NCBI GenBank assembly: GCA_017303775.1 | Contig: JAFLCH010000006.1 | Coordinates: forward strand, 1 to 41,689 | Source of the DNA: Anaerolineae bacterium | GTDB lineage: Bacteria; Chloroflexota; Anaerolineae; Aggregatilineales; Phototrophicaceae | DNA: 41,689 nucleotides | Direction: 5' to 3' | In this document: positions 2,267-38,463 of the stretch, in pieces | Layout: every line of letters begins with the position of its first letter | How positions within the stretch are numbered: the first letter of the stretch is position 1 | Program-made: the position numbers and the translations under genes | Notes under the pieces: model-generated | What the model was told of the DNA's origin: nothing | The model's database searches: none | Seen by the model: only the letters and a program-made list of their open reading frames with translations

Positions 2267-2317
2267 ATGTCTGAACTGAAACATCAACAGGTGTGGATTG
2301 ATGCATACGGGCGATAA
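2267..2317 (+). CDS. Possible 16-codon leader ORF overlapping the acylphosphatase start
   Basis: The ORF (ATG TCT GAA ... CGA TAA) encodes MSELKHQQVWIDAYGR and runs 17 nt into the acylphosphatase gene in another frame. It has no Shine-Dalgarno sequence. Its ATG sits where the transcript from the extended -10 box should begin, so a leaderless uORF that couples translation is possible. A chance ORF of this length is also plausible. Confidence 0.25.
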   Translation: MSELKHQQVWIDAYGR

Positions 2318-2582
2318 GCGACTGCATGCTCGGATTTATGGACGGGTGCAAGGAGTCAGCTTTCGCTATAATACATTGCAGACCGCGAACCGGTTAGGTG
2401 TACGAGGATGGGTTCGGAATCGACCTGATGGTTCGGTTGAAGTGATGGCTGAAGGGACACAGGGTGTTCTGGAGGCGCTAGTTGAATTTTTGAATACTGG
2501 ACCGATAGGCGCTTATGTGCGACAGGTCGATGTTGAATGGTCGGCTGCAATTGATGAATTTGAATATTTTCAGGTGCGTTGA
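2301..2582 (+). CDS. acyP: Acylphosphatase
   Basis: A 93-residue protein of the usual acylphosphatase size. It hydrolyses acyl phosphates such as acetyl phosphate and carbamoyl phosphate. The signature loop GRVQGVSFR near residues 15-23 supplies the phosphate-binding Arg. GVRGWVRNRPDGSVEV carries the catalytic Asn in the family pattern GWVRN. The ATG at 2301 is preferred to the TTG one codon earlier; an AGGTG ribosome site lies just upstream. It is followed 28 nt later by the PHAX-domain gene, so the two are probably co-transcribed. A link between their functions is not obvious. Confidence 0.95.
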   Translation: MHTGDKRLHARIYGRVQGVSFRYNTLQTANRLGVRGWVRNRPDGSVEVMAEGTQGVLEALVEFLNTGPIGAYVRQVDVEWSAAIDEFEYFQVR

Positions 2583-2610: not shown

Positions 2611-3723
2611 ATGAGTGATGAGACCAAGAAAAAAGTGCCATGGGCTGAGATCAAGGCAGCAGCGAATGAAATCGCTGACCTGCTGGGCGAGACCCATGCG
2701 GTACCTCGTGCGCAGATCCGGCATGTTGTCGAAGCATGTGGGATTGAGTTCGCACGCGGATTGTATCAAGAGACCCAACAGATCGAGGCTGATGGTGGCT
2801 TAATGCTGCCGGATCAATCTCGACGACGGACGGTAGGCGGCGTGTTTTTTCATCTAGCACGCAAGAAGTTGGCCCCGGAACTGGTCAAGAAAATATTCCC
2901 CGGATATAAACGAAAGCAGAAACCTAAGCAGCAGAAAGCCTCATCTGCGCCAGTACAGACTGTTGTGGTGGAAGAACTGCCTGTTTTTGTGTGGGATGAG
3001 CGTGCTGGACTCGTTGAGATGTTGGCAGCTGAGCAAGGAGTGGTCAGCTCTATGAAAGTAACATTGATTGGTAGACCGGGTAAAATTGAAGCACGAAAAG
3101 ATGTCATCATCACGACGATGCTGCATACGATTCAGTCCCCGATGCTGCCGAAAGGTGTGCCGATGCCACCGAGCGACCCGATGTTATATACGGTTTATAT
3201 CTCGGCAAAACAATGGCGCAAGATTGAAGCTGCTATTGCTGATCCGGCAGATTCGTTGATCGTTGAAGGGCTTTGCACATACGATCCGGCGATCAAAGGG
3301 ATGGCTGTGTTTGCTACAAATGCATTGAGCAAATCGATGGAAATCAAGCGGCGCGATGGGCAGAAAGCAGCCTCACAGTCGAACCCTGCACCTGCCACGG
3401 AAGAGACTGAAGCACCTGCTGCGGTATCGACTCCACCACCTGCCGTAAACCCGCCGCTACCTAAACCAAAAAAGTCGCGGATTGCTGAGAGTTTACCTGT
3501 GGTTGAACCCGCGCCCACGGTTGTGCCATCAATCCCCGGACTCCCCGCGGATGTGGCGCAAAAACTACAAGAGTTATATGCATCAGCTTCACTTTTCCGC
3601 CAGAAGGTTGCGACGATTCAGTCCAAGCCTGCGGGGCAGCAGTTCGGATTGGAGATGACACAGAAGCTGTTGAAGAACGTTGAGGATGAAATCGCCGCGC
3701 TAGAAAAGAAGTATGCTGAATAG
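2611..3723 (+). CDS. PHAX RNA-binding domain protein with middle domain and coiled-coil tail
   Basis: A 370-residue protein. Residues about 30-105 match the RNA-binding domain of eukaryotic PHAX, the snRNA-export adaptor: ETQQIEADGGLML, then SRRRTVGGVFFHLARK at 70-85, then a basic KRKQKPKQQK stretch. In PHAX the corresponding segment is a Gly-Gly-Leu followed by SRRRTPGGVF. Residues about 120-255 form a second globular region, mostly predicted beta, that I do not recognise. Next is a Pro/Ala-rich linker (about 257-320). A charged helical tail (about 322-370) contains LQELYASASLFRQK and is likely a coiled coil. Bacterial members of the PHAX domain family are known to exist; their RNA targets are, as far as I know, undefined. 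Cytoplasmic RNA binding is inferred. The gene lies between acylphosphatase and the ribosomal protein L32 gene. Confidence 0.75.
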   Translation: MSDETKKKVPWAEIKAAANEIADLLGETHAVPRAQIRHVVEACGIEFARGLYQETQQIEADGGLMLPDQSRRRTVGGVFFHLARKKLAPELVKKIFPGYKRKQKPKQQKASSAPVQTVVVEELPVFVWDERAGLVEMLAAEQGVVSSMKVTLIGRPGKIEARKDVIITTMLHTIQSPMLPKGVPMPPSDPMLYTVYISAKQWRKIEAAIADPADSLIVEGLCTYDPAIKGMAVFATNALSKSMEIKRRDGQKAASQSNPAPATEETEAPAAVSTPPPAVNPPLPKPKKSRIAESLPVVEPAPTVVPSIPGLPADVAQKLQELYASASLFRQKVATIQSKPAGQQFGLEMTQKLLKNVEDEIAALEKKYAE

Positions 3724-3742: not shown

Positions 3743-3771
3743 TTGACTTCAAACCTCTCGAACCTTATAAT
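3743..3771 (+). promoter_or_regulatory. Sigma-A promoter for rpmF
   Basis: TTGACT at 3743-3748, a 17-bp spacer and a perfect TATAAT at 3766-3771. A GAGGAG ribosome site follows, just before the GTG start at 3812. Confidence 0.85.
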
Positions 3772-3811: not shown

Positions 3812-3997
3812 GTGGGTCCGCTACCTAAACGTAGACACTCCAGCACACGCCGTAACAAGCGTCGTTCGCATGATGCCCTGAGCTTGAATCACCTTGTTGT
3901 GTGCGAAAGCTGTGGTGAATACCACGTCGCGCACCGTGTTTGCCCCAAATGCGGCACATACAAAGGTGAAACCGTTGTTGAAGTCAAAGAAGCCTAA
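3812..3997 (+). CDS. rpmF: 50S ribosomal protein L32 (zinc-binding form)
   Basis: A 61-residue protein with the L32 opening MGPLPKRRHSSTRRNKRRSH and two CxxC pairs, CESC and CPKC, that bind zinc. The Cys-plus form is kept, unlike zinc-free paralogues used under zinc shortage. The start is GTG with a strong GAGGAG site about 7 nt upstream. It has its own consensus promoter and a terminator directly downstream. Many bacteria have rpmF followed by plsX and fab genes; here plsX is absent and fabD comes next. Confidence 0.97.
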   Translation: MGPLPKRRHSSTRRNKRRSHDALSLNHLVVCESCGEYHVAHRVCPKCGTYKGETVVEVKEA

Positions 3998-14803: not shown

Positions 14804-16384
14804 CTATACTTTTTTGCTGACCTTAAAGCGCAGGGGAATCCCGACCATTAGTCTTGTTTGAGCTTGTAGCGTAGGAAGTGCCACAAAAATCAGCGTCATG
14901 ACCGTCAATAGCGGGAAGCTTAGAACGGTATAAATGCGTTCACGCCATGTTTGTGGTTGGGTGCGCGGTGGGCGTTCGATCACATCTTGGTACCAGAATA
15001 CGATCCCTAAGACAGCGACCAGCACAAACGATACTTGCAGGAGCACGTAAGCTGGATTACCTAAACCCTCAGAAACAACCTGACCGAGTAAAGGGGGATT
15101 GAAAAGAAATGGCAGTTGCGCACCCATCGTTAGAATAATCCATCCCGCACCGGCCAGTAAGATGTCATGTGCGACGCGGAATAGCAGCTTGAAAGAGACT
15201 CCGAAATCGACTTCCGGATGCTCCAACATTTTGGCGACGATGTAGCCAACTTCCTTACTGCCCCATGCGTGCCGCAGCGTTTGCTCATAACGGTTCTTTA
15301 TGGCTTGCCATAACGTCTCACCGGTGACGGCAGTGGCCGAAAATGGCAGGAATATCCGGTCCAACATCACCGCCCCTTCACGGGCAAAATAGGCTTTGAT
15401 GAACATATGCCACTCATCGGCGATCACATCACCATCCCAGTAGCCGCTGGCGTCCAGTAATTTGAGGCTGAGCGAGTAAGAGGACATGGGCATCGGTATC
15501 CACCACGGTGCTGCCAGATAAGCCAGTTCAAAGGCGGTTGAATAGGCGTTCACCAACCGTAGCAGAGGGTTAATTTCCCAAATATTCGTATGGTAGCGGA
15601 TTGGAGCTTGCCAGAAGCGCAGATGGCGCTCCGGTGTGATGGCGAAAAGGTAAGTTTGTGCGTAGAAATGATCTTTATGCCACAGCGAGTCTGCATCTTG
15701 AGTCGTTACGCAGATTCGGTCAATATCGTATCCCATTTGATCGACTAACCGCCGTTTGACCCAACGGGCTGCCCATGCTTCATTGGCGGATTTGCACTGC
15801 ATTTCACCCGGCAGCCCGCGCGGATGCACTGTGTAAAATAGGTTAGCGAAGCACGGGGCATAATCCCGTACAAGCTGTTCGGCCTTCCCTACACAGTCAT
15901 CTTCTCCGGCTTCCATCGCCAATACGACCGTCATACGGTGGCGCGCCTGATATTGAGCCGCTAGATTGTCCAATGTGCGTGTGAGGATGGGAATAGGTTC
16001 TTTGTAATTGGGAATGATGACGACATGATGAACATCATCCCATGGCATAGCATGTTCATCCGCTTCTGCCTGATAGCGGGCATGCCAGTCTGTGCGTTCC
16101 CACTCGCGGATTTTCCGTAAACCCATTACGTTTGCGATGCCGGCGAACAGAAATCGTACTGCCGAGTAAAAACCTAACAGCGCGGCGATCAACAGCAGCC
16201 CACGGGGGAAGGCAATAGCCGCAGCGATAGCGAATAGCAGCGCCAACCATGCAAGGCAGCCGGGTATACCATCCAGCGCTCGTTCCGGGATAGCGGGTGG
16301 TGGTGTTCCGGCCCAGAGTGACCGACCCACCCCCAGTTGTACGTTGTTTCGGCGACCACCACTCGATTGATACGGCACAATCAA
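14804..16384 (-). CDS. Membrane glycosyltransferase, family 2
   Basis: A 526-residue processive-type GT2. Two membrane segments lie near residues 43-85 (CLAWLALLFAIAAAIAF and LLLIAALLGFYSAV). The GT-A domain contains HHVVIIPNYKEP, the metal-binding DAD in CVTTQDADSLWH, the base region VIADEWHMF and the acceptor-site-like RYEQTLRHAWG. Four more membrane segments follow at about 385-505. It likely polymerises or transfers an activated sugar to a membrane acceptor. Product is unknown. It sits downstream of ddl with a 112-nt gap and near other envelope genes. Confidence 0.88.
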   Translation of the reverse strand: MIVPYQSSGGRRNNVQLGVGRSLWAGTPPPAIPERALDGIPGCLAWLALLFAIAAAIAFPRGLLLIAALLGFYSAVRFLFAGIANVMGLRKIREWERTDWHARYQAEADEHAMPWDDVHHVVIIPNYKEPIPILTRTLDNLAAQYQARHRMTVVLAMEAGEDDCVGKAEQLVRDYAPCFANLFYTVHPRGLPGEMQCKSANEAWAARWVKRRLVDQMGYDIDRICVTTQDADSLWHKDHFYAQTYLFAITPERHLRFWQAPIRYHTNIWEINPLLRLVNAYSTAFELAYLAAPWWIPMPMSSYSLSLKLLDASGYWDGDVIADEWHMFIKAYFAREGAVMLDRIFLPFSATAVTGETLWQAIKNRYEQTLRHAWGSKEVGYIVAKMLEHPEVDFGVSFKLLFRVAHDILLAGAGWIILTMGAQLPFLFNPPLLGQVVSEGLGNPAYVLLQVSFVLVAVLGIVFWYQDVIERPPRTQPQTWRERIYTVLSFPLLTVMTLIFVALPTLQAQTRLMVGIPLRFKVSKKV

Positions 16385-36512: not shown

Positions 36513-38447
36513 CTAATCTTGCCGGCGTTCGCTCATCTCAAGGTCGATGATCGTATTCGCCACGGCTTCAATCGCCACTTTCTGTTTCCGGTAAAAATCC
36601 GGTTCGCTCAACGCCAGCCGGTTCGCCACATCGCGAACCTTATCCCGTTCAATGAAACGCATTTCGAGGATGTTATAAACCATCCACTCCGGGCTGAGCA
36701 GCTTTCGCTCACCTTCCGGTCGTTGCAAGTCAATCGCCTTTTGCAAAACGCTCCGCAGCGCCCGTGCGGGGTTCTCCGCGTTTTCCGCTAAGGCTCCGCG
36801 TACAATGTGGAACTCCAGCAGCCGGCTGCTCGTTAAACCGGGGCCACCCCAGTAATGGCGCAGCGCCGCGCGTACCTGCTCAATAATCTGTTCGCGCTCA
36901 CTGATCAGTTCCGGTGTCGCCGTCGCTTGCCCGTTTCGCCCCGGACGGTATTCAACTTCTGCCGCTCGGCTTCGCGTGATGTTGATCTGTGGCAGCAATC
37001 CCTCCAGCGCGGCATAAATCTCCGACTGCACATTCATGTCTTCCAACGTCTCAGCCGCTCGCTTAACTTGCGTATGAAACGTTTTTTGCTCATCTGTAGT
37101 CAGGTCAATATGGCCGGATCGCGCCTGTATGCCGAGGAACCCGATAATCGCCTGATCCCCATATTCGTTTGGCGTTCTGCCTCCGAAGAGCGGGGTTATC
37201 CAATAGGTCTGCCATGCCGAAAGCTCGCTCTTCTCTGGGCTTCCGTGTGTTGCCAGCACGCTGATGATGGCGCTTTTCTCATCTTGCAGCCAATTTGCGT
37301 TCGGGCGTGTCGGCCCCACCGAAGCCACCAACTCCGGCGCGTCATCAACCAGCGAAACCACAAACGCCGTGCTCACCTGCAAATAATCGCAGGTGGATGA
37401 AAGCACCGCGTCCAATAATTGCCGTAAATCAGAACGGGTCAGCAGTCGTTCGCTCAAATCCTGTAATTTTTCGAGCTGGTCATCATCTTCATTGTTGTAG
37501 ATGAACTTCTGTTGCAGCCATGGGATAGCGATAGCGATCAACCACTGCCAGAACAGGATCACCACCACCACCGCGAAGGGAATGATGCTCGTTGCGGTCA
37601 AACCCAATATACGGGTCGCTGGCGTGAACAGATTAATCACCGCCACCGCCAGCAGTGCCGTCGCCGGCCCGCGCAGCATGAAGCGCATCAAATCAGCTTT
37701 AACCACCCGGTCGGGCTTTTGCGTCCCGAAGAACGACAGCGGATACGACAAGAACAGCAGCATCAAAATCAACGCCGTATTCGCGATGTTCACGAGGAAC
37801 AACATACCTACCGAAGCCGTCTCGCTTAACCCCAACAGCACCGAATAAGGGAAGATGCCCAGCGCCGGCGTCAGCATCGCGAACTGCAAATAACCCATCC
37901 GCCGTCTTGTGTCGCGCGTCAGGCAGCGTTGCTTAGCCCGCTGCACGTTGATGAACGACACCCCGATTGCCGCCGCGAAATACACCACATAGACGCTGAA
38001 CAACGTCCCGCTGAGGATATTGACCAGTGTTGTATTCCGGATGATCGGGATAATCAGGATGTTGCTGAAGGCCGCCGCGATGATGAACAGCGCGCCGATG
38101 AAGTACAGCAGCCGCGCCACCCGTCTGCGTCTCCCGCGTGAGGGCAGCCCCGTAGTTGCCAGCAGCGCGTCCGAAAGGTGAAATGTCGCCGCCGGAACGA
38201 ATGCGATTCCGATCCACTGCGCCCGCACGATATTTTCCAGTGTTCCCGAACTGGGGCGCATCGAAATCAAAACATCGCACAACGACACAATCGTCACGCA
38301 GGCCAGCACAATGCCTGATGTGCGCGCAATCCGGTTGCGCAAATTACGGGTGAGGTTGTAAATGAAAAGCGAAGCGGTCAGGACAACGATCGCGGTCGCC
38401 AGTGTCTCATTGATCGAATTAAGCAGGGTTGAGAGAATGTCTTCCAT
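36513..38447 (-). CDS. Seven-helix membrane sensor with GAF domain and HTH-like C-terminus
   Basis: A 644-residue protein. About nine hydrophobic segments fill residues 10-320; the first seven form a histidine-kinase-N-terminal-7TM-like sensor (RAQWIGIAFVPAATFHLSDALL). QLEKLQDLSERLLTRSDLRQLLDAVL is the linker into a GAF-like domain at about 335-460. No His-kinase or GGDEF module follows. Instead the last 115 residues hold NILEMRFIERDKVRDVANRLALSEPDFYRKQKVAIEAVA, which looks like a sigma-region-4-type or winged HTH with a recognition helix. So it may be a membrane-bound one-component regulator, with DNA binding unproved. It follows the GNAT gene by about 10 nt in the rpoD operon. Start ATG 38447 or GTG 38453. 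Confidence 0.75.
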   Translation of the reverse strand: MEDILSTLLNSINETLATAIVVLTASLFIYNLTRNLRNRIARTSGIVLACVTIVSLCDVLISMRPSSGTLENIVRAQWIGIAFVPAATFHLSDALLATTGLPSRGRRRRVARLLYFIGALFIIAAAFSNILIIPIIRNTTLVNILSGTLFSVYVVYFAAAIGVSFINVQRAKQRCLTRDTRRRMGYLQFAMLTPALGIFPYSVLLGLSETASVGMLFLVNIANTALILMLLFLSYPLSFFGTQKPDRVVKADLMRFMLRGPATALLAVAVINLFTPATRILGLTATSIIPFAVVVVILFWQWLIAIAIPWLQQKFIYNNEDDDQLEKLQDLSERLLTRSDLRQLLDAVLSSTCDYLQVSTAFVVSLVDDAPELVASVGPTRPNANWLQDEKSAIISVLATHGSPEKSELSAWQTYWITPLFGGRTPNEYGDQAIIGFLGIQARSGHIDLTTDEQKTFHTQVKRAAETLEDMNVQSEIYAALEGLLPQINITRSRAAEVEYRPGRNGQATATPELISEREQIIEQVRAALRHYWGGPGLTSSRLLEFHIVRGALAENAENPARALRSVLQKAIDLQRPEGERKLLSPEWMVYNILEMRFIERDKVRDVANRLALSEPDFYRKQKVAIEAVANTIIDLEMSERRQD

Positions 38448-38463
38448 GATCACACATCATCAG

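What the first reader, a model, noticed from the sequence alone, without database searches (positions are those of the whole stretch)
2611..3723. Bacterial protein with a PHAX (snRNA-export adaptor) RNA-binding domain
Seen: GGLML, SRRRTVGGVF and a basic tail in the order found in eukaryotic PHAX, joined to an unknown beta-rich domain, a Pro-rich linker and a coiled coil. Known: PHAX binds RNA and links snRNA to export factors. Inferred: the bacterial version binds RNA, perhaps structured RNA or tRNA; position before rpmF hints at a translation link.
Basis: partly seen in the sequence, partly recalled or inferred. Interest (0 to 1): 0.68.

Follow-up and report, generated by a model that had tools for sequence, protein, structure and literature searches.

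The report
Bacterial PHAX-type RNA-binding multidomain protein
A bacterium of the phylum Chloroflexota carries a protein whose first part is the RNA-gripping module of the eukaryotic snRNA-export factor PHAX, joined to a second nucleic-acid-binding fold and a coiled coil, and related bacteria mix the same module with other RNA-binding domains, so it is very probably a real but unstudied bacterial RNA-binding protein family.

Summary
ORF 2611-3723 encodes a 370-aa protein whose residues 18-97 match Pfam PHAX_RNA-bd at 67.8 bits (cut-off 25; E 8e-19). They are predicted to fold like solved PHAX domains (Cryptosporidium 2w4s, Z 12.6, 1.5 A over 81 residues; human RNA complex 2xc7, Z 9.2). It is followed by a Pro/Ala-rich linker and a helical hairpin.

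In sampled genomes of the window's order 44% carry a PHAX domain (66/151); in the phylum 5% do (16/301). In 88 distinct bacterial proteins it is fused to OB (56), RRM (25) or cold-shock (5) domains; the OB domain also occurs as RRM-OB. Hfq and ProQ were not found in 26 relatives.

Most likely it is a multivalent single-stranded-RNA-binding protein (an RNA chaperone or regulator). RNA binding is inferred, not shown. It is not a PHAX export adaptor: the cap-binding, NES and CRM1-binding parts are absent. The rpmF link is weak: it is local to close relatives, and rpmF has its own promoter-like site. I found no paper on bacterial PHAX domains, but Pfam's model detects them easily.

The parts
2611..3723 (+). 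whole gene: PHAX-OB-coiled-coil protein, 370 aa
   Evidence: full-length orthologues at 43-53% identity in 9 named MAGs and more
2641..2901 (+). PHAX RNA-binding domain (residues 11-97; Pfam envelope 18-97)
   Evidence: PF10258 67.8 bits; VIA-align Z 12.6 to 2w4s, Z 9.2 to 2xc7
2902..2982 (+). basic linker (residues 98-124, GYKRKQKPKQQK...)
   Evidence: translation; low pLDDT 58-62
2983..3360 (+). OB-fold domain with a leading helix (residues 125-250; barrel about 144-245)
   Evidence: AF2 models pLDDT about 95 in the full protein and 92.8 alone; the listed structural matches are OB proteins: SSB, PriB, RPA, class II aaRS
3361..3546 (+). Pro/Ala-rich, mostly low-confidence linker (residues 251-312, 16 Pro)
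3547..3720 (+). C-terminal two-helix coiled-coil/hairpin (residues 313-370), conserved motif GQQFGLEMTQKLLKN
   Evidence: helices 313-337 and 347-369 at pLDDT over 90; conserved in 33 of 88 distinct relatives
2298..2582 (+). acylphosphatase gene 28 bp upstream, probably same transcript
   Evidence: PF00708 1.6e-23; upstream partner of PHAX in several congeners
3743..3771 (+). promoter-like site (TTGACT, 17 nt, TATAAT, 11 of 12) in front of rpmF, suggesting rpmF is transcribed separately
   Evidence: a consensus match only
3812..3997 (+). rpmF (ribosomal protein bL32), next gene; not considered part of the system

Best explanation
The gene encodes a multivalent single-stranded-RNA-binding protein. 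The PHAX-type helical domain grips a few nucleotides of ssRNA as in human PHAX. The OB fold provides a second single-strand binding surface on the same chain. The C-terminal helical hairpin probably oligomerises the protein, so that several PHAX-OB units coat or bridge RNA. In the cell it would act as an RNA chaperone or post-transcriptional regulator, in a lineage where Hfq and ProQ were not found. Shown here: the PHAX domain's family and predicted fold, the predicted OB fold, the conserved modular architecture and the distribution. Inferred: RNA binding, oligomerisation and the chaperone/regulator role.
For: PHAX profile 67.8 bits. A profile of 88 bacterial PHAX domains finds human PHAX at 1.3e-18 and Cryptosporidium at 4.5e-15. 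Fold match to 2w4s Z 12.6 and to the human RNA complex 2xc7 Z 9.2. Of 24 columns conserved in at least 70% of bacterial members, 15 are identical in both human and Cryptosporidium, including E27, G44, GG62-63, R71, R72, T74, GG76-77. OB fold: all matches listed by VIA-align for the isolated domain are OB proteins, Z 8.2 down to 7.0 at rank 50. Fusions of PHAX with RRM_1 (1e-19), cold-shock domain (1e-9) and OB, and of the same OB with RRM without PHAX or with Arg-rich repeats, all point to RNA. In 26 relatives: PHAX 19, RRM 21, Hfq 0, ProQ 0.
Against: No binding experiment and no RNA target. The PHAX domain is not strikingly basic (13 K+R versus 11 D+E). The nearest OB relatives in fold are mostly ssDNA proteins (SSB, PriB, RPA). 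The family is patchy (16 of 301 genomes of the phylum), so it is not a phylum-wide core RNA chaperone. No conserved gene neighbour names a pathway. Absence of Hfq/ProQ does not show that this protein replaces them.
Confidence: 0.62

Rival explanations
1. A single-stranded-DNA-binding accessory (replication, partition or repair): the OB fold does SSB/PriB-like work and the PHAX module assists on ssDNA or on the RNA of replication intermediates.
For: Structural neighbours of the OB are SSB, PriB and RPA. Some copies sit near genes that look like parA, parB and a primase-polymerase (L105, L109, L111, L120: my reading of the sequences). Herpetosiphon carries one on a 340-kb plasmid.
Against: The recurrent partners of PHAX and of this OB are RRM and CSD, typical RNA modules. 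The window copy is not near replication genes. No sequence-level match of the OB to SSB/PriB families in Pfam or PDB chains.
Confidence: 0.15
2. A translation or ribosome factor: the protein acts on rRNA, tRNA or the ribosome, linked to rpmF.
For: rpmF lies 88 bp downstream in the window and downstream in a few relatives. Lys/Asn-tRNA synthetase OB domains are among the structural neighbours.
Against: rpmF adjacency is limited to close relatives, often with genes between. A promoter-like site separates rpmF from this gene. Most PHAX loci have other neighbours. The rpmF-fab order is itself common in bacteria (general knowledge), so the position is uninformative.
Confidence: 0.1
3. The PHAX fold has been re-used as a protein-interaction or structural module and does not bind nucleic acid.
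For: No experiment shows RNA binding. Charge is near neutral.
Against: The segment most conserved between kingdoms (GG...SRRRTxGGVF) is kept in diverse bacterial proteins that share little else, and the module keeps company with RRM, CSD and OB domains.
Confidence: 0.08

Closest known systems
Human PHAX RNA-binding domain (PF10258; PDB 2xc7, complex with ssRNA)
   Same: Same sequence family and predicted fold, about 36% identity over the aligned region; same invariant E, G, GG, R-R, GG positions.
   Different: Bacterial; no CBC-binding helix, cap-contacting segment, NES, CRM1-binding segment or phosphorylation clusters; fused to OB and a coiled coil instead.
Cryptosporidium parvum PHAX-like domain (PDB 2w4s)
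   Same: Closest fold match, Z 12.6, 1.5 A over 81 residues.
   Different: Deposited as part of an ankyrin-repeat protein of a eukaryote.
OB-fold single-strand binders (SSB, PriB, RPA; OB domains of aaRS)
   Same: Five-strand barrel with a helix between strands 3 and 4; Z 7-8.
   Different: 7-20% identity; no Pfam family matches the majority of members; separate sequence family, mostly fused to PHAX or RRM.
Bacterial RRM proteins and cold-shock proteins
   Same: Small RNA-binding modules that are fused directly to PHAX in related genomes.
   Different: The window protein has neither; its RNA modules are PHAX and probably OB.
Hfq and ProQ RNA chaperones
   Same: Possible functional analogy (multivalent RNA binding).
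   Different: Unrelated folds; neither family found in 26 relatives; functional equivalence untested.

Membership tests
PHAX RNA-binding domain family (PF10258) | profile score above the curated cut-off | tested here: met
   67.8 bits against 25; reciprocal profile from 88 bacterial domains finds human PHAX at 1.3e-18
PHAX RNA-binding domain family (PF10258) | PHAX helical fold | tested here: met
   AF2 residues 11-97, Z 12.6 to 2w4s and 9.2 to 2xc7
PHAX RNA-binding domain family (PF10258) | conserved core residues GG...SRRRTxGGVF | tested here: met
   15 of 24 conserved bacterial columns identical in human and Cryptosporidium
PHAX RNA-binding domain family (PF10258) | binds single-stranded RNA | not testable with these tools
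   needs binding assay
PHAX snRNA-export adaptor (whole protein) | N-terminal CBC/cap-binding segment, NES and CRM1-binding parts upstream of the RBD (human residues 55-60, 112-162; PMC12350170) | tested here: not met
   only 10 residues precede the domain fold; phmmer aligns to human PHAX residues 231-323 only
OB fold | five-stranded barrel, helix between strands 3 and 4 | tested here: met
   DSSP order and structural matches; predicted model, not solved
SSB / PriB sequence family | Pfam or PDB sequence match | tested here: not met
   no SSB/PriB match for any of 60 members at E 0.1; profile against PDB chains finds none up to E 10
Hfq / ProQ RNA chaperones | family profile match | tested here: not met
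   the window protein matches only PF10258 above its cut-off; Hfq and ProQ profiles find nothing in the genome or 25 relatives

The most novel reading that the evidence does not exclude
PHAX-OB/RRM/CSD proteins are the principal RNA chaperones of part of the Chloroflexota, doing the job Hfq and ProQ do elsewhere, and the eukaryotic PHAX RNA-binding domain descends from this more diverse bacterial family (or shares an origin with it) rather than being a eukaryotic invention.
Probability: 0.15. Interest if true: 0.82.

Novelty: new variant of a known kind. Interest (0 to 1): 0.58.

Why it matters
PHAX's RNA-binding domain is treated as part of the eukaryotic snRNA-export machinery. Here it is a recurrent, modular building block in bacteria, swapped among OB, RRM and cold-shock partners. 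That gives a bacterial system in which to study what the domain binds, raises the question of where the eukaryotic export adaptor got it, and points to RNA-binding proteins in a phylum whose post-transcriptional control seems little known. It also defines an OB-fold domain family that Pfam does not hold.

Tried and rejected
Phage or viral origin: no relatives in phage records or viral contigs. Plasmid spread: in 72,556 plasmids only one Herpetosiphon plasmid carries a PHAX relative. Known RNA element nearby: no Rfam match in the window. A conserved partner gene: acylphosphatase upstream and rpmF-fabD downstream recur only in close relatives; others have UbiA-like genes, ParAB/primase or nothing recurrent. 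The coiled coil as ATG16 or an Ig-blocking protein: scores far below cut-offs. Assigning the OB to SSB/PriB by sequence: no match. A tree to date the bacteria-eukaryote relation: the 91-column alignment is too short; human and Cryptosporidium group together (99/89) and join the one RRM-PHAX-OB protein L038 (95/81), but most deep forks are unresolved and only two eukaryotic sequences were at hand, so direction of transfer is not claimed. Literature: no paper on bacterial PHAX domains found in the held library; the 2001 and 2010 papers on the human domain are not held, so RNA-contact residues could not be compared one by one.

Full report
What is there. The ORF at 2611-3723 (+) encodes 370 aa. 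Pfam gives one match above its cut-off, PHAX_RNA-bd (PF10258), at 67.8 bits, E 8.1e-19, residues 18-97. A plain sequence search of PDB chains finds human PHAX (2xc7, 8pnt) and the Cryptosporidium domain 2w4s at about 1e-7.

Structure. AlphaFold2 with 56 family members gave mean pLDDT 87.5, with the domains mostly above 90 and the linkers low. Residues 11-97 align to 2w4s with Z 12.6, 1.5 A over 81 residues, and to 2xc7, the human domain in complex with ssRNA, with Z 9.2 over 85. Residues 144-245 form a barrel with a helix between strands 3 and 4. The isolated domain (pLDDT 92.8) matches OB-fold proteins throughout the listed rows (SSB, PriB, RPA, OB domains of aminoacyl-tRNA synthetases): Z 8.2 at the top, 7.0 at rank 50. 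No Pfam family recognises most members of this OB domain and no PDB sequence does, so it is a separate sequence family with a known fold. Residues 251-312 are Pro/Ala-rich, and 313-370 form two helices with a conserved GQQFGLEMTQKLLKN motif.

Distribution. The protein has full-length orthologues (43-53% identity) in nine named metagenome-assembled genomes, all Chloroflexota (Anaerolineae, Aggregatilineales, 'Chloroflexi'). PF10258 is found in 66 of 151 genomes of the order, in 15 of 16 congeners, in 15 of 249 genomes of the class, in 16 of 301 of the phylum and in none of 14 control genomes. There were no hits in phages or viral contigs, and one in plasmids (Herpetosiphon). Other bacterial phyla could not be sampled systematically.

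Architectures. Among 88 distinct bacterial PHAX proteins: PHAX-OB-coiled coil 33, PHAX-OB 16, RRM-PHAX 13, RRM-PHAX-coiled coil 11, PHAX alone 7, cold-shock-PHAX-OB 5 (one with three cold-shock-like domains), and one each of PHAX-coiled coil, RRM-PHAX-OB and PHAX-OB-OB. Pfam confirms RRM_1 (up to 1e-19) and CSD (about 1e-9) in examples. The three cold-shock-like repeats of L130 rest on my own profile only; Pfam did not call them. PHAX-OB is also the form in nearly all the extra loci from other families of the class. A search with the OB profile found OB domains without PHAX: RRM-OB (three), zinc ribbon-FHA-OB (two), and OB with Arg/Asp-rich repeats and a coiled coil (one). The same few RNA-related modules are thus shuffled, which is the strongest indirect evidence that PHAX still binds RNA in bacteria and that the OB does too.

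Conservation. Of 24 columns conserved in at least 70% of bacterial members, 18 are identical in human PHAX and 15 in both human and Cryptosporidium, concentrated in GG...SRRRTxGGVF. A profile of the bacterial domains finds human PHAX at 1.3e-18 and Cryptosporidium at 4.5e-15.

Context. The window gene follows an acylphosphatase gene by 28 bp. rpmF and fabD follow it, but a promoter-like site (11 of 12 matches) lies between this gene and rpmF, and rpmF adjacency is limited to close relatives, often with genes between. Other family members have other neighbours. The idea of a translation link from position is therefore weak. In 26 relatives, Hfq and ProQ were not found, whereas RRM proteins were found in 21 and PHAX in 19.

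Mechanism. Most likely a multivalent ssRNA binder: PHAX domain and OB domain on one chain, a flexible linker, and a helical hairpin that probably oligomerises, acting as an RNA chaperone or regulator (0.62). RNA binding is inferred from family and fold; the chaperone role is a further inference. The main rival is an ssDNA-side role, because the OB's fold relatives are SSB, PriB and RPA and some copies sit near partition and replication genes (0.15).

Membership. It belongs to the PHAX RNA-binding domain family. It is not a PHAX export adaptor: the cap-binding, NES and CRM1-binding segments of PHAX (human residues 55-60 and 112-162, PMC12350170) are absent.

Novelty. The domain is recognised by an existing Pfam model, so databases may already list bacterial members. 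I found no paper discussing them in the library searched, which lacks most subscription journals. What appears new here is the scale of the bacterial family, its modular architectures, and the recognition of the partner as an OB fold.

Noticed in passing
L148:5791-6798, L149:2727-3893: Zinc ribbon-FHA-OB proteins in the same genus carry a divergent copy of the OB domain, suggesting a link of this OB family to phospho-signalling.
   Followed up: partly
L146:4737-5558: An OB protein with many PRRD-type Arg/Asp-rich repeats and a C-terminal helix pair like that of the window protein, without PHAX.
   Followed up: no
L076:8683-9786: PHAX and OB are in two adjacent ORFs separated by one stop codon in G441: a recent split, a pseudogene or an assembly error.
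   Followed up: no
L151, L152, L150: Truncated OB fragments without a PHAX domain in genomes that also hold intact copies, apparently decaying paralogues.
   Followed up: no
L105, L109, L111, L120: PHAX-OB-CC genes lie near genes that look like parA, parB and a primase-polymerase protein (my reading, not confirmed by Pfam).
   Followed up: partly
Herpetosiphon aurantiacus plasmid CP000876.1, 89904-90488 (= L140): A PHAX protein with two tandem OB domains, annotated as hypothetical, in a named species and therefore a candidate for experiments.
   Followed up: partly
window 14804-16384 (-) and 36513-38453 (-): Two large ORFs (526 and 646 aa) without any Pfam match at 0.001.
   Followed up: no
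G000 contigs C254, C38, C266: The genome also encodes three small (103-113 aa) single-RRM proteins; relatives have up to five.
   Followed up: partly
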